A stretch of 64,000 nucleotides of DNA from Natrinema hispanicum (GTDB lineage: Archaea > Halobacteriota > Halobacteria > Halobacteriales > Natrialbaceae), in contig NZ_FOIC01000006.1 of the NCBI RefSeq assembly GCF_900111485.1, positions 1 to 64,000 on the forward strand. The letters are read 5' to 3'. The position numbers and the translations under genes are program-made. Position 1 is the stretch's first letter, and each line of letters starts with the position of its first letter. The notes beneath the pieces are model-generated. The model did not search any database. It had not been told where the DNA came from and saw only the letters and a list, made by a program, of their open reading frames with translations. Positions 16,995-22,829 of this stretch are shown here, one piece after another.

Positions 16995-17876
16995 ATGGAC
17001 GGTCCCGACGCCGGTAAGTCAGACTCCGATCGGTCCGACCGTCTCGATGCGCTCTCGAGACGGGACCGAGACCCGACGACGGAGTCGGACGGCCGCGGAC
17101 AGGACGTCGGCACGCGACCGCGAACACGCGGCAGCGATGCGGAGACGATCGCAGACGACGGGATCGGTCGCTGGCTACTCGAGACGGACACTCGAGTTGG
17201 CACCGCGATTCGAGACATCGTGACGATCGTCGCGATCGTCGCGATCAGTGGCTGCCTGCTGGTCGGGATCGGCGGTGTCTGGCCGCCGTTTGTCGCTGTC
17301 GAGAGCGGCAGTATGGAACCAAATATCGGGCAAGGGGATCTCGTTTTTATCGTCGATGAGGGACGGTTCGCCGGCGATGGTGCAGTCGCGGAAACGAGCA
17401 TCGTCACCGTCCGGCGCGGCCACGACAGCAGCTACCAACGGTTCGGGAAGTCGGGTGACGTCATCATCTTCCTGCCGAACGGCGATCCGACGAAGACGCC
17501 GACGATCCATCGCGCCCAGTTTCGAGTCGAAGAGGGAGAACGGTGGGTCGAAACGAAGGCCAATCCCGCGTATTTAAACGGTGCGAGCTGTGCCGATCTC
17601 GCATCGTGTCCAGCACCCCACGATGGGTTTATTACGAAAGGCGACGCCAATCCGGCCTACGACCAGGTACCGTGGTCGGGTGCGAATACGACCGTCGTCA
17701 GCGCCCAGTGGGTTACTGGCAAGGCGATGGTTCGAGTCCCGTGGATCGGAGAGATTCGACTGGCAGCCGATTCGGTCCGTTCAGTCGTCGGTATTGGCCC
17801 GATCATCGTCGCCACCGTTGGCAGCGTACTCGCGCTCATCTGGTACGGGACGGCCGCCGAGACGCGCGACCCGTGA
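16995..17876 (+). CDS. sec11: signal peptidase I (S26B, Sec11-type), first copy
   Basis: 293 residues. It cleaves signal peptides on the outer face of the membrane. An acidic cytoplasmic extension (1-65) leads to a membrane span (residues 73-93). The catalytic Ser106 is in VESGSMEP, His172 in PTIHRAQF replaces the bacterial Lys, and FITKGDAN gives the Asp217 region, the archaeal Ser-His-Asp arrangement. A second hydrophobic segment (VVGIGPIIVATVGSVLALIWY) ends the protein. It is followed after 96 bases by a paralogue, and diverges from polD1. Confidence 0.93.
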   Translation: MDGPDAGKSDSDRSDRLDALSRRDRDPTTESDGRGQDVGTRPRTRGSDAETIADDGIGRWLLETDTRVGTAIRDIVTIVAIVAISGCLLVGIGGVWPPFVAVESGSMEPNIGQGDLVFIVDEGRFAGDGAVAETSIVTVRRGHDSSYQRFGKSGDVIIFLPNGDPTKTPTIHRAQFRVEEGERWVETKANPAYLNGASCADLASCPAPHDGFITKGDANPAYDQVPWSGANTTVVSAQWVTGKAMVRVPWIGEIRLAADSVRSVVGIGPIIVATVGSVLALIWYGTAAETRDP

Positions 17877-17972
17877 CATGCTCCGCGCCGTAACCGCCGC
17901 GAGGCTCTTGTCACTCAAAAATAGCCCGTGCGAACAGAAGGTTGATTTTCGCGCCCGGTGAAACGAGTGACG

Positions 17973-18917
17973 ATGAGCGGCTCTAGCTCCGGGACTTCTC
18001 CTGGCGATTCCGGCGACGACGACCGCGACCGGTCGGATGAACGCGCCGGTAGTCCCCAGACGCCGTCACCGGAACCCTCACCGACCGCGTCTGATTCCGA
18101 CGACGTGACGATCGAAGACGACGGAGTCATCCGCTGGTTCCTCAAGACGAACGATGAGACTGTCATGGTGACACGAGACGTCTTGAGCAGCGTCGCTATC
18201 GTCGCCGTCGTCGCCCTCCTCTTATTCGGCGTCAGTGGGATCTGGCCGCCACTGGTCGCCGTCGAGAGCGGTAGTATGGAACCGAACATGTACAGAGGAG
18301 ACCTCATCTTCGTCGTCGAGGAAGACCGGTTTGTCGGCGATAACGCAATCGAGGGAACCGGCGTCGTCACCCTCGAGCGCGGTCAGGAGACCGACTACAC
18401 CAAGTTTGGCAATCCTGGCGATGTCATCGTCTTCAGGCCAAACGGCAATCCGGCGAGGACACCGGTCATCCATCGCGCCCACTTCTGGGTCGACGAAGGT
18501 GAAAACTGGGTCGATACGAAAGCCAGCGAAGAGATCGTCGGCGACGCAACCTGTCAGGGGGTTCCGAACTGTCCCGCACCGTACGCCGGCTTCGTCACGA
18601 AAGGCGACCACAACCTCGGCTATGATCAAACGGGTGGCGGTGCCAACACCAACATCGTCAAACCCGAATGGATCACCGGCAAAGCACAGTACCGGATCCC
18701 GTGGCTCGGCCACGTCAGACTGGCCGTCGACGACCTTCTTGGGGGCATGCTCGTTCCGCCGTCACCCTCGAGCCAGCTGGCAGATACACAGCCGGAGCCG
18801 GCACCGATGACACCCGCCGGTCCCGCGTCCGGTTTCGAGTCGAACGGCGAACTCGCCGGTATCGCTGGCGTCGCCGGCGGCAGTATCGCACTGGCCGCAG
18901 GTCGGTATCGACCCTGA
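17973..18917 (+). CDS. sec11: signal peptidase I (S26B, Sec11-type), second copy
   Basis: 314 residues, a tandem paralogue of the preceding gene. It has the same plan: Ser/Asp/Pro-rich N-terminal extension, one membrane span (about 72-91), Ser101 in VESGSMEP, His167 in PVIHRAHF and Asp212 in FVTKGDHN. The C-terminal tail is longer (SSQLADTQPEPAPMTPAGP, then a final hydrophobic stretch). The ATG at 17973 was chosen over an in-frame GTG at 17958. Two Sec11 paralogues are known in other haloarchaea; which precursors each one prefers cannot be told from sequence. Confidence 0.92.
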   Translation: MSGSSSGTSPGDSGDDDRDRSDERAGSPQTPSPEPSPTASDSDDVTIEDDGVIRWFLKTNDETVMVTRDVLSSVAIVAVVALLLFGVSGIWPPLVAVESGSMEPNMYRGDLIFVVEEDRFVGDNAIEGTGVVTLERGQETDYTKFGNPGDVIVFRPNGNPARTPVIHRAHFWVDEGENWVDTKASEEIVGDATCQGVPNCPAPYAGFVTKGDHNLGYDQTGGGANTNIVKPEWITGKAQYRIPWLGHVRLAVDDLLGGMLVPPSPSSQLADTQPEPAPMTPAGPASGFESNGELAGIAGVAGGSIALAAGRYRP

Positions 18918-19118: not shown

Positions 19119-20897
19119 TCAGTTCTCGAACCGAGCCTGAATAAATGGCTGCACGTCGTCGATATCGCTCAGCCGGGAATCACTCAGTAACACAGCCTCC
19201 GTCTCTTCGAGTGGAACGGAGAGACTGATCTCTTTGGTCCGACCGTACCGACCCTTCGAGACGACGACGGCGTTGACGATGCCGAGCATGTCGAGTTCGC
19301 TGATGAGGTCCGTCACCCGGCGCTGGGTCAGGACATCGGCGTCGATCTCCTCACAGAGACGCTTGTAGATGTTGAACACCTCGCCCGTGTTGATGCTGTG
19401 GACGCCGTTTTTCTCGAGCAAGATGATCGCAAAGAGCACGAGTTTGCTCTGGGTCGGCAGCGTCCGGACGACTTCGACGACGCGGTCGAGTTCGATCTTG
19501 TCCTGGGCCTGCCGGACGTGTTCCTCGACGATCGTTTCGGCCTGGGAGCGCTCGGCCAGCTCACCCGCGGTGCGAAGCAGATCGAGTGCACGACGTGCGT
19601 CACCGTGTTCCTGTGCGGCAAACGCTGCACACAGCGGGATCACGTCCTCGGAGAGGGCACCGTGCTTGAACGCGACGTTCGAACGATGCTCGAGGATGTC
19701 GCGTAACTGATTCGCGTCGTACGGTGGGAACACGATCTCCTCTTCGCCCAGCGATGACTTGACCCGGGGGTCGAGGAAGTCGGTGAACTTCAGATCGTTC
19801 GAAATGCCGATGATCGAGACCCGCGAGTTCTCGAGTTCGGAGTTCATCCGCGAGAGGTTATAGAGCGTATCGTCGCCGCTTTTCTCGACGAGTTTGTCGA
19901 TCTCGTCTAACATGATGACGACGACCCGCTCGTCGTAGTCGACGGCGTCGAAGAAGACGCTGTAGACACGGTCGGTCGGCCAGCCAGTCATCGGAACCTC
20001 CTCAAACGACTCCCTGTCGGCCTCGAGTTCCTCGATGCGGGCTTCGACCGCCTCGCGACTCTCGAACGGCGTCGACTCGAGAGGGTGGTCCGGTGGAAGC
20101 GCGGTCGAATCGGCAGCCGTCGCGTCCCCGGTGCCGTCGACCGGTGTCGAATCGGATTCAGTGGAGGGCAAGGACGCTTTCGATTCTGACGCTCCCGAAT
20201 ACCCCTCTGCTTCAGGTGGAGAACCGCCTGACTTGGACTCGATGTCGTCTCCAGACGAAACGTTGGTCTTTGACTCCGTCGCGTCCTCGAGTGCGACCTC
20301 GAACGGGTCCGACGCCGGTTGGTCGTTGGACCGGTCGTCCGCGTTTTCCCCGTGGGTATCACGAGCGTCGACGGTCGCATCGTACTCATCGAGGGCGTCT
20401 AGCAGCGACTCGAGGGTCGCGAGTTGCTCGTCGATCCGTTGTTCGTTCTTCTCGATGAACTTGTTCGCCAACTGTGCGAGCACGCGATACTGGGTGTCAG
20501 TGACCTCACAGTTGATGTACTCGACGTCACACGGGACGCTGTACTTCTGGGACGTGCTCTCGAGTTCCTTGCTGACGAACTTCGCGCTTGCGGTCTTGCC
20601 GGTGCCGGTTTTACCGTAGATGAGGATGTTCGACGGCGTTTCGCCGCGAAGGGCAGCCACCAGAATGGTCGCCATCTTATTGATCTGGTCGCTTCGATGG
20701 GGAAGTTCGTGTGGCGTGTAGGATGGACGGAGTACCTCTTTGTTCTCGAAGATAGGTTCACCGCTGAGGAGATCGTCGAACAACCCCTGATTCGACTCCT
20801 CGTCACCGAGATCAGCGTTCTCGAAGTTCGTCGAGAACCCCCTCGTTCCGTCGATTTCAACCTCGTCCGAATCTGCGGTTTCTGAGTCGTCTGACAT
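19119..20897 (-). CDS. orc1: Orc1/Cdc6 replication initiator
   Basis: 592 residues. It binds ORB elements at the adjacent origin and loads MCM. Walker A GKTGTGKT is at 95-102, Walker B VVVIMLDEID at 325-334, sensor 1 IIGISNDL, sensor 2 region HGDARRALDLLRTAGE, and a C-terminal winged helix (VLTQRRVTDLISELDMLGIV, SKGRYGRTKEISL). Typical members have about 400 residues; the excess is an acidic, Ser-rich insert at about 155-300 between Walker A and B. The DNA of that insert holds an ORB-like sequence. The start is 14 bases from an ORB-like site overlapping the promoter, suggesting autoregulation. Confidence 0.97.
   Translation of the reverse strand: MSDDSETADSDEVEIDGTRGFSTNFENADLGDEESNQGLFDDLLSGEPIFENKEVLRPSYTPHELPHRSDQINKMATILVAALRGETPSNILIYGKTGTGKTASAKFVSKELESTSQKYSVPCDVEYINCEVTDTQYRVLAQLANKFIEKNEQRIDEQLATLESLLDALDEYDATVDARDTHGENADDRSNDQPASDPFEVALEDATESKTNVSSGDDIESKSGGSPPEAEGYSGASESKASLPSTESDSTPVDGTGDATAADSTALPPDHPLESTPFESREAVEARIEELEADRESFEEVPMTGWPTDRVYSVFFDAVDYDERVVVIMLDEIDKLVEKSGDDTLYNLSRMNSELENSRVSIIGISNDLKFTDFLDPRVKSSLGEEEIVFPPYDANQLRDILEHRSNVAFKHGALSEDVIPLCAAFAAQEHGDARRALDLLRTAGELAERSQAETIVEEHVRQAQDKIELDRVVEVVRTLPTQSKLVLFAIILLEKNGVHSINTGEVFNIYKRLCEEIDADVLTQRRVTDLISELDMLGIVNAVVVSKGRYGRTKEISLSVPLEETEAVLLSDSRLSDIDDVQPFIQARFEN
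20201..20221 (-). repeat. ORB-like sequence inside orc1
   Basis: On the minus strand it starts CTCCACCTGAAGCAG and ends AGGGGT. It agrees with origin element ORB1 at 17 of 21 positions. It lies in the part of orc1 that encodes the variable acidic insert, not the conserved AAA+ core. Confidence 0.45.
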
Positions 20898-20910: not shown

Positions 20911-20931
20911 GCCCCCTTATTTCGTGTGGAG
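20911..20931 (-). promoter_or_regulatory. ORB-like site overlapping the orc1 promoter
   Basis: On the minus strand this reads CTCCACACGAAATAAGGGGG; 15 of 21 positions fit the ORB pattern. Its GAAATAAG part is also the only TATA-like block upstream of the orc1 start, centred about 23 bases ahead, so a leaderless orc1 transcript is predicted. Either function alone could explain the sequence; together they suggest Orc1 represses its own gene. Confidence 0.4.
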
Positions 20932-21417
20932 TGTCGAGTCGGGAATCAGGAATCTCATGGTCTGATGGGGTCCATAGGTGGATCCACAGTTCCAGATACC
21001 CGAGTCGGGTCCAGTTGATGCAAACGAAACAGAGGAAAACCACAGTAATAAAGCCTTCCTTTCCCTTCATCTCGTGCTGGAACGACGATCAGTGACGCTC
21101 GAGTCGGCTCGAATTGAAATAGTCCGAGTACTAATTCAGATGAGCGTCATGTCGGATTGACAATACTGAGGAACTGTGTTAGCGCTGTTTCTCGATTATG
21201 AATTGTTGTTACGCGCGAGTGGGGTGTCAGAAACGATAAACAGAGACAAGATCGTAGCAGATCGGGGACGAATAACGAGAGTGCAGTTGGTGTTCAGATT
21301 CTCCATACCGATGTTCCGTACGTTAGGATCGACCGAGACACGGGATGTGTGATTCGGACGTTTATTGAGATGGTCGTTACCGTTTCACAGAGTTATATGT
21401 TAGTAGCTACTATATGC

Positions 21418-21450
21418 GTTCCCCCCCCCACCCCTTCGTTTCAGGTGGAA
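21418..21450 (-). repeat. ORB1 with G9 string
   Basis: On the minus strand the core is TTCCACCTGAAACG followed by AAGGGGT and nine G. It fits the haloarchaeal origin recognition box bound by Orc1. Its orientation is opposite to ORB2, so both G-strings point outward from the central region. Confidence 0.85.
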
Positions 21451-21452
21451 CG

Positions 21453-21470
21453 CTCCGAAGGAGGGGGGGG
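21453..21470 (+). repeat. shortened ORB (mini-ORB)
   Basis: CTCCGAAGGAGGGGGGGG looks like an ORB from which the central nine bases (AGTTGAAAC) have been removed. With the C-run of ORB1 it forms a quasi-palindrome of about 50 bp (C-run and CCTTCG at the left, CGAAGG and G-run at the right). Confidence 0.5.
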
Positions 21471-21483
21471 TGAGATGAGGTTT

Positions 21484-21661
21484 CTAGAAGGGAAGGTTTT
21501 AGGTTGGTTGGCTAGAAACAGTAACCGTAGAACTAGCAGAACAGCATGTCTTACTAGAGATGCGTTCTTTATTACTAGTATCTACTAGCCTATATTCTTG
21601 GAACTGCTAGTACTAGTAACTAGTAGAATCCATTACTAGATCCGTTCTACCCCTTTACTAG
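21484..21661 (+). repeat. CTAG-rich array with partial 21-22 bp spacing
   Basis: Eleven CTAG tetramers start at 21484, 21512, 21533, 21554, 21575, 21585, 21607, 21613, 21620, 21636 and 21658. Four successive sites are exactly 21 bp apart (21512 to 21575); the last two are 22 bp apart, as are 21585 and 21607. Several share the longer word TTACTAGA. CTAG is rare elsewhere in the window. Two helical turns per step would put the sites on one face of the helix. Confidence 0.7.
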
Positions 21662-21676
21662 ATCCGTTCTACCCCT
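21633..21676 (+). repeat. 22-bp perfect tandem direct repeat (two copies)
   Basis: Two contiguous identical 22-bp units, 21633-21654 and 21655-21676, each starting TTACTAGATCCGTTCT and ending ACCCCT. They form the right end of the CTAG array, about 110 bp left of ORB2, and may be iterons. Confidence 0.85.
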
Positions 21677-21786: not shown

Positions 21787-21816
21787 CTCCAGTTGAAACG
21801 AAGGGGTGGGGGGGGG
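21787..21816 (+). repeat. ORB2 with G9 string
   Basis: Core CTCCAGTTGAAACG followed by AAGGGGT and nine G. It is inverted relative to ORB1, 336 bases away. The equal length of the two G-runs suggests selection. Confidence 0.85.
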
Positions 21817-22190: not shown

Positions 22191-22829
22191 ATGGGACTGT
22201 TCACAGAACTCAAAGATAGTATCTCTCGGGTGACGGATCGCCTGTTTTCGGAACAGGAGCCCAAACGAATCGGTATCTATGGTCCGCCGAACGCCGGCAA
22301 GACCACGCTCGCAAACCGCATTGCACGCGACTGGACGGGTGATGCCATCGGTGCGGAGAGTCACATCCCCCACGAGACGCGTCGCGCACGCCGCAAAGAA
22401 AACGTCGACATCGAACGCAACGGGAAGACGGTAACGATCGACATCGTCGACACGCCCGGTGTGACGACCAAGGTCGACTACGAGGAGTTCACGGACGAAC
22501 TCGACGAAGAGGACGCGATTCGTCGCTCCCGTGAAGCGACCGAAGGCGTCGCCGAGGCGATGCACTGGCTACGCGAAGACGTCGACGGCGTCATTTACGT
22601 ACTGGATAGCGCCGAAGACCCGATCACGCAGGTCAACACGATGTTGATCGGCATCATCGAGTCTCGCGATCTTCCGGTTCTCATCTTCGCGAACAAGACT
22701 GACCTCGATGACTCGAGCGTCAAGCGGATCGAGGATGCCTTCCCACAGCACACGACTGTGCCTCTCTCTGCGAAGGAAGGCGACAACATGGACGAAGTGT
22801 ACGACAAGATCGCGGAATACTTCGGGTGA
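22191..22829 (+). CDS. oapA: origin-associated Era-like GTPase OapA
   Basis: 212 residues with a full GTPase set: G1 GPPNAGKTT (31-39), switch region with HIPHETRRA, G3 DIVDTPGV, and G4 NKTD. The fold is Era-like. It is the first gene after the origin, in the conserved order orc1-origin-oapA-oapB-oapC. The function is not established; the constant position suggests a link to replication or its timing. Start MGLFTELKD was preferred over an upstream in-frame codon whose 19 residues look non-coding. Confidence 0.88.
   Translation: MGLFTELKDSISRVTDRLFSEQEPKRIGIYGPPNAGKTTLANRIARDWTGDAIGAESHIPHETRRARRKENVDIERNGKTVTIDIVDTPGVTTKVDYEEFTDELDEEDAIRRSREATEGVAEAMHWLREDVDGVIYVLDSAEDPITQVNTMLIGIIESRDLPVLIFANKTDLDDSSVKRIEDAFPQHTTVPLSAKEGDNMDEVYDKIAEYFG

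What the first reader, a model, noticed from the sequence alone, without database searches (positions are those of the whole stretch)
21484..21676. CTAG array with partial helical spacing inside the replication origin
Eleven CTAG tetramers occur in about 180 bp; four are exactly 21 bp apart and two more pairs 22 bp apart, about two helical turns. CTAG is rare in the rest of the window, as in most haloarchaeal DNA. The array lies between the inverted ORBs, where an unwinding element or a second initiator site would be expected. The shared word TTACTAGA suggests an unknown DNA-binding protein. I know of no described haloarchaeal origin element of this kind, but I have not searched.
Basis: partly seen in the sequence, partly recalled or inferred. 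Interest (0 to 1): 0.75.

Follow-up and report, generated by a model that had tools for sequence, protein, structure and literature searches.

The report
Phased CTAG array inside haloarchaeal oriC1
Between the two initiator-binding boxes of a salt-loving archaeon's main replication origin lies an evolutionarily conserved row of CTAG sites, a word that is rare elsewhere in its genome and is the likely target of a DNA methyltransferase it carries, so the row may be a methylation-sensitive switch on DNA replication.

Summary
In detail: 11 CTAGs lie in 178 bp between the inverted G-string ORBs of oriC1 in a Natrinema-like genome (CTAG background about 0.4/kb). It is a conserved origin element. In 27 Natrialbaceae genomes (12 genera by reported genus tags) the core CTAGs sit at fixed distances from the left ORB (spacings about 20/22/10/31 bp). 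They are 93% identical, like the ORBs, while the spacers are 37% identical. The array stays with the ORBs in three genomes where the origin lies 0.14-1.3 Mb from orc1. CTAG clusters (not phased) lie between the ORBs in several other haloarchaeal families. Unphased CTAG clusters also flank a second origin in 17 of 20 Natrialbaceae tested. Part of this is known: Blow et al. 2016 reported CTAG clusters upstream of orc1/cdc6, correlated with an orphan m4C-CTAG methyltransferase; this genome has a homologue. New here are the element's exact anatomy, helical phasing and conservation, plus limits on the methylation idea: the methyltransferase link loses significance after phylogenetic correction, and five methyltransferase-positive Halorubrum genomes lack the array. 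Best guess, about 40%: a methylation-sensitive control array in the unwinding region. Main rival: a methylation-independent CTAG-binding origin protein.

The parts
19119..20897 (-). orc1/cdc6 initiator gene next to the origin (592 aa)
   Evidence: NCBIfam NF001625 and TIGR02928, Pfam Cdc6_C
21421..21452 (-). left ORB with G-string
   Evidence: ORB scan; exact coordinates
21460..21472 (.). G-rich repeat just inside the left ORB, placed like the G-rich enhancer repeat of H. hispanica oriC1
   Evidence: sequence; comparison with PMC3936714
21484..21487 (.). CTAG-1, about 35 bp inside the left ORB; present in 12 of 27 Natrialbaceae and at similar offsets in several other families
21495..21530 (+). 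conserved block: T-rich box (here TTTTAG; TTTAT in most relatives), then GAAACAGTAACCGTAG; conserved in most families even without CTAG
   Evidence: alignment of 70 inter-ORB segments; fuzzy match frequencies
21512..21515 (.). CTAG found at this column in 7 of 27 Natrialbaceae, all in the window's own genus tag
21533..21588 (+). core of the array: CTAG at 21533, 21554, 21575, 21585, conserved in 23, 27, 27 and 26 of 27 Natrialbaceae at fixed spacing
21607..21623 (.). three CTAGs (21607, 21613, 21620) lying where 24 of 27 genomes have one CTAG 31 bp after the core
21633..21675 (+). CTAG 21636 (10 of the 11 genomes of the window's genus tag) and its recent 22-bp tandem copy at 21658
21788..21816 (+). 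right ORB with G-string
22191..22829 (+). Era-like small GTPase gene, the conserved neighbour on the other side of oriC1

Best explanation
The array is a conserved cis element of the haloarchaeal chromosomal origin, lying in the unwinding region between the inverted ORBs (shown by comparison; about 95% sure). Most likely it is a methylation-sensitive control element (inferred). The orphan cytosine-N4 methyltransferase of the zim/HG1 type, encoded elsewhere in the genome, methylates both strands of each CTAG. After the fork passes, the sites are briefly hemimethylated, and this state changes how the Orc1 complex, or an unidentified CTAG-binding protein, engages or melts the segment, so that initiation is gated. 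In Natrialbaceae the sites are spaced by whole helical turns (about 21, 10, 31 bp), which would put them on one face of the DNA for cooperative binding. The confidence is for this mechanism, not for the conservation.
For: CTAG is the most over-represented of the 256 tetramers between the ORBs in f1 (177 vs 32 expected) and f4 (96 vs 19), second in f7 and f12/14. The core is 93% identical across Natrialbaceae while spacers are 37%. CTAG itself stays while its flanks vary, as expected if the 4-bp word is what is read. It stays between the ORBs in 3 genomes where oriC1 lies 0.14-1.3 Mb from orc1, so it belongs to the origin and not to the orc1 promoter. A second origin with a different ORB also has CTAG clusters, in 17 of 20 Natrialbaceae, with unphased, mostly short spacing: what the two origins share is CTAG density, as a methylation target would require. 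The genome carries an N6/N4 methyltransferase with the TSPPYPMIEMWD motif that is absent from most genomes tagged g17 and from G060, whose contig length equals that of Haloquadratum walsbyi C23; this matches the published HG1 m4C-CTAG family, absent from Halorubrum and Haloquadratum. All inter-ORB segments with 3 or more CTAGs are in genomes that have this enzyme. Within f5: methyltransferase-negative 4 CTAG in 13 origins, positive 19 in 14, Mann-Whitney p=0.006. Precedent.
Against: With phylogenetic correction the methyltransferase-array link is not significant (p=0.085 density, 0.15 count; only 4 changes on the tree). The enzyme is not sufficient: five methyltransferase-positive Halorubrum genomes have 0, 0, 0, 0 and 1 inter-ORB CTAG, many f17 genomes have 0-2, and genus g5 has the enzyme but few or no CTAGs near its GTPase-side gap. 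No SeqA homologue and no conserved neighbour gene of the methyltransferase, so no reader is known. Deleting the enzyme in H. volcanii gave no growth defect, though its oriC1 is not CTAG-dense either. A methylation reader does not by itself explain the TTA...A flanks in this family. The methylation state of these sites is unknown.
Confidence: 0.4

Rival explanations
1. Methylation-independent binding array: an unidentified origin-binding protein (nucleoid protein, second initiator or helicase-loading factor) binds TTACTAGA-like sites on one face of the helix and shapes the DNA between the two Orc1-bound ORBs.
For: In Natrialbaceae most core sites share the same asymmetric TTA-CTAG-A context on the same strand at helical spacing. 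Phasing at 10.5 bp in f1: p=0.0005 against random placement. The array is locked in register to the left ORB, while the distance to the right ORB varies. In Sulfolobales a nucleoid protein binds an essential non-ORB origin motif (PMC12141716).
Against: Flank and phasing are not seen in other families nor at the second origin, where CTAG alone is shared. CTAG clusters are not found between the ORBs in genomes without the methyltransferase.
Confidence: 0.35
2. Physical unwinding element: CTAG is favoured because its central TpA step is flexible and easily melted; phased steps aid bending and opening of the origin.
For: The array coincides with the thermodynamically weakest stretch between the ORBs.
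Against: The f5 origins, mostly without CTAG arrays, have an equally weak stretch at the same place. A purely physical role would accept other TpA words, yet CTAG alone is invariant and ranks first of 256 tetramers.
Confidence: 0.13
3. Operator of a promoter inside the origin: the T-rich box plus conserved block is a promoter firing towards the GTPase gene, and CTAG sites around its start are repressor sites.
For: In the class-wide alignment a TTTAT box lies about 26 bp before a conserved CCG, a typical archaeal TATA-to-start distance (own knowledge), with CTAG-2 just after it.
Against: No transcript data; no RNA family match; the array persists in three genomes where oriC1 lies away from orc1, and in only one of them is the GTPase still next to it.
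Confidence: 0.08
4. Neutral relic: CTAG is avoided elsewhere and merely tolerated in this AT-rich gap, or multiplied by tandem duplication.
For: The last copy at 21655-21675 is a recent tandem duplicate.
Against: Other AT-rich gaps lack such clusters; shuffles never reach 11; the core is conserved across 12 genus tags with diverged spacers.
Confidence: 0.02

Closest known systems
CTAG clusters at haloarchaeal orc1/cdc6 genes correlated with an orphan m4C-CTAG methyltransferase (Blow et al. 2016, PMC4752239 Fig 6D; HG1 in PMC10609329; cHG U in PMC6471742; zim/HVO_0794 in PMC5867850)
   Same: CTAG enrichment at orc1/cdc6-linked origins, methyltransferase in the genome, clusters at more than one origin
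   Different: The main text read here treats motif density over 50-kb regions. Not found there: location between the ORBs, fixed register to one ORB, helical phasing, conservation of sites over spacers, retention when the origin is separated from orc1, the phylogenetically corrected test, and absence of the array in several methyltransferase-positive lineages
E. coli Dam/SeqA sequestration of oriC (GATC cluster)
   Same: Cluster of a short palindromic methylation target inside the origin. SeqA in vitro prefers two GATC sites phased by 2-3 helical turns (PMC5145175)
   Different: Other word and base, no SeqA homologue here. E. coli oriC GATC sites are not phased. No functional data here
G-rich inverted repeat inside oriC1 ORBs of Haloarcula hispanica (enhancer; PMC3936714)
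   Same: A non-ORB element between the inverted ORBs of the same origin class; a similar G-rich stretch is present here at 21460-21472
   Different: Different sequence; the CTAG array lies further inside and is not mentioned in the passages read
ucm/UBP origin motif of Sulfolobales (PMC12141716)
   Same: A non-ORB origin element read by a chromatin protein
   Different: Different lineage; the motif sequence was not compared here
Plasmid iterons
   Same: Direct repeats near 21-22 bp apart next to an initiator gene
   Different: Here only a 4-8 bp word repeats and the spacers are unrelated

Membership tests
Haloarchaeal oriC1 | Inverted ORBs with G-string flanking an AT-rich segment next to orc1/cdc6 | tested here: met
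   ORBs at 21421-21452 (-) and 21788-21816 (+); inter-ORB GC 46% against 64% for the window; Orc1 at 19119-20897
CTAG-cluster/orphan-methyltransferase origin system (Blow 2016) | CTAG cluster at an orc1/cdc6-linked origin | tested here: met
CTAG-cluster/orphan-methyltransferase origin system (Blow 2016) | Orphan m4C-CTAG methyltransferase in the genome | tested here: inconclusive
   Homologue at G000:C65:72997-74046, PF01555, absent from the same lineages as HG1. No search for a partner restriction enzyme was made; specificity and activity are inferred, not shown
CTAG-cluster/orphan-methyltransferase origin system (Blow 2016) | Cluster presence follows methyltransferase presence across genomes | tested here: inconclusive
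   Mann-Whitney p=0.006 within f5, but PGLS p=0.085; five methyltransferase-positive Halorubrum genomes lack the array
CTAG-cluster/orphan-methyltransferase origin system (Blow 2016) | Sites are actually methylated | not testable with these tools
   No methylome data held
Dam/SeqA-type sequestration | SeqA or homologue | tested here: not met
   PF03925 finds nothing in the genome; the control finds E. coli
Dam/SeqA-type sequestration | Origin held inactive while hemimethylated | not testable with these tools
   needs experiment
Iterons | Tandem direct repeats of about 17-22 bp with conserved full unit | tested here: not met
   Spacers 37% identical; only CTAG and short flanks conserved

The most novel reading that the evidence does not exclude
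The helically phased CTAG array is the docking platform of an unknown archaeal protein that reads m4C-CTAG methylation at the origin, an archaeal counterpart of Dam/SeqA control of initiation that arose independently.
Probability: 0.27. Interest if true: 0.88.

Novelty: new variant of a known kind. Interest (0 to 1): 0.6.

Why it matters
Three papers read here state that the function of CTAG methylation in haloarchaea is unknown. This work replaces a density signal with an exact element: named sites at fixed positions between the ORBs, with natural variants that have and lack it. It also offers a reason why the one deletion test read here, in Haloferax volcanii, showed no growth defect: that organism's oriC1 is not CTAG-dense, and the f5 genomes examined here mostly lack the array. 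Natrinema, with chromosomal-origin shuttle vectors available (PMC5350488), is a better test organism.

Tried and rejected
GATC replacing CTAG in genomes without the enzyme: rejected, 14 observed against 9.7 expected, rank 50. Class-wide helical phasing: rejected, p=0.22 at 10.5 bp outside Natrialbaceae. A reader gene next to the methyltransferase: no conserved neighbour among the 12 loci where my ORF caller found the gene; it missed the gene in 8 loci. SeqA homologue: none. RNA family match: none. Plasmid records with similar origin DNA: none. No structure prediction was run.

Full report
Observation. The window carries orc1 at 19119-20897 (-) and an Era-like GTPase at 22191-22829 (+), with oriC1 between them. 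All eleven lie between two inverted G-string ORBs at 21421-21452 and 21788-21816. Dinucleotide shuffles of the inter-ORB segment reached at most 10 in 5000 trials. Background in the same genome is 0.397 CTAG/kb, and AT-rich windows elsewhere hold at most 4. A genome-wide pattern search for three close CTAGs gives 27 places in 4 Mb: 9 here, 7 at C70 upstream of another orc1/cdc6 gene, and 1 at C38 upstream of a third.

Source of the genome. The methyltransferase's best named relatives are Natrinema limicola and N. hispanicum at 95%, so the window is from Natrinema or close to it; I therefore call family tag f1 Natrialbaceae. G164 is N. limicola JCM 13563, matched by the position of the gene on its contig.

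Conservation in the family. I took the orc1 side of 119 further genomes (120 regions) from 195 searched genomes of the order and cut out the segment between the inverted ORBs where a pair was found. In 27 Natrialbaceae genomes (12 genus tags) the CTAGs fall at nearly fixed distances from the left ORB: about 35, 84, 104, 125, 135 and 166 bp. Core columns hold CTAG in 23, 27, 27, 26 and 24 of 27 genomes. Mean pairwise identity is 0.93 in CTAG core columns, 0.93 in the ORBs and 0.37 in the spacers; 15 of 20 core columns but 0 of 44 spacer columns are identical in 26 or more of 27 genomes. The alignment program favours shared words, but the distances from the left ORB were measured without alignment. 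The window's own array keeps four core sites (21533, 21554, 21575, 21585); the site at +166 is replaced by three CTAGs, and the last site is a recent 22-bp tandem duplicate.

The element belongs to the origin. In G024, G100 and G094 the inverted G-string ORBs lie about 158 kb, 143 kb and 1.34 Mb from orc1. In all three the array lies between the ORBs (20, 8, 23, 10, 21, 21; 31, 10, 22; and 20, 22, 10, 31 bp), while the sequence upstream of orc1 has no array there.

Phasing. Against random placement, 10.5-bp phasing in Natrialbaceae gives p=0.0005, best period 10.25; outside them p=0.22. Because these genomes share one ancestral arrangement, the f1 result is one evolutionary arrangement kept across genera, not twelve independent ones. 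The flank TTA-CTAG-A is mostly on one strand in this family and is not seen elsewhere.

Other families and a second origin. CTAG ranks first of 256 tetramers between the ORBs in f1 and f4, second in f7 and f12/14, twelfth in f17, nineteenth in methyltransferase-positive f5 and 206th in methyltransferase-negative f5. At a second origin with a different ORB, 17 of 20 Natrialbaceae with enough upstream sequence have 3 or more CTAGs within 200 bp, mostly outside the ORB pair and with short unphased spacing. This favours CTAG itself, rather than TTACTAGA or phase, as the shared feature.

Methyltransferase. The genome encodes a PF01555 enzyme (G000:C65:72997-74046) with TSPPYPMIEMWD near the N-terminus. 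It was found in 176 of 195 genomes; among complete ones it is missing only in f5, matching HG1, the m4C-CTAG orphan family missing from Halorubrum and Haloquadratum. Genomes without it have 0-2 inter-ORB CTAGs (mean 0.31, n=13); f5 genomes with it average 1.36 (n=14; p=0.006); all positives average 3.68 (n=104). With phylogenetic correction the effect is not significant (p=0.085; four changes on the tree). Five Halorubrum genomes with the enzyme have 0, 0, 0, 0 and 1 CTAG. So where an array was seen the enzyme was also present, but the enzyme does not imply an array, and independent losses are too few to prove dependence. GATC does not replace CTAG in the negatives.

Anatomy between left ORB and array. 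The class-wide alignment of 70 segments shows: left ORB and G-string, G-rich stretch, CTAG-1 in many, a TTTAT box, then AAACARTATCCGCA followed closely by CTAG-2 in many genomes. The TTTAT/AAAC/CCG block persists in most genomes that lack CTAG, so it is a separate conserved element. The weakest 30-bp windows lie across this block and the first core CTAGs, in genomes with and without the array.

Mechanism. Shown by comparison: a conserved origin element in the unwinding region, made of CTAG sites. Inferred: methylation by the zim-type enzyme, a change after replication, and gating of initiation. The strongest hints are that CTAG alone is shared between the two origins and among families, that CTAG persists while flanks vary, and the published correlation. 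The main rival is a methylation-independent binding protein, supported by direction and phasing in Natrialbaceae.

Literature. Blow et al. 2016 reported CTAG clusters upstream of orc1/cdc6 genes and the correlation with the orphan enzyme; its main text prints the motif as CATG while the Fig 6D legend says CTAG. PMC5867850 found CTAG density near oriC2 only in H. volcanii and no growth defect on deletion. PMC10609329 and PMC6606915 state that the function is unknown. In the held library I found no description of positions between ORBs, phasing or site conservation, but supplements could not be read and subscription journals are largely missing.

Noticed in passing
window 21495-21530; aligned inter-ORB segments of 70 genomes: A second conserved origin block, TTTAT-N14/15-AAACARTATCCGCA, between the left ORB and the array, kept in most genomes without CTAG; TATA-like distance to a conserved CCG.
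   Followed up: partly
G000:C70:65889-65999 (L163) and L285-L307: A second CTAG cluster beside an oriC2-type origin, mostly outside its ORB pair, with short unphased spacing; 17 of 20 Natrialbaceae tested.
   Followed up: partly
L166 (G024), L167 (G100), L168 (G094): oriC1 lies far from orc1, by about 0.14-1.34 Mb, with the array still between the ORBs.
   Followed up: yes
window about 20911-20936: An ORB-like box about 14 bp upstream of the orc1 start, also seen in most Natrialbaceae examined; possible autoregulation.
   Followed up: no
G087, G134, G169 (genus g5): No exact match to the G-string ORB pattern GAAACRAAGGGGTGGGG and 0-3 CTAGs near the GTPase, although the methyltransferase is present.
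   Followed up: partly
G178, G195-G198 (Halorubrum-like): Five methyltransferase-positive genomes without the array.
   Followed up: yes
window 16995-17876 and 17958-18917: Two adjacent, similar ORFs with a signal-peptidase-like look (VAVESGSMEPN), apparently a tandem duplication.
   Followed up: no
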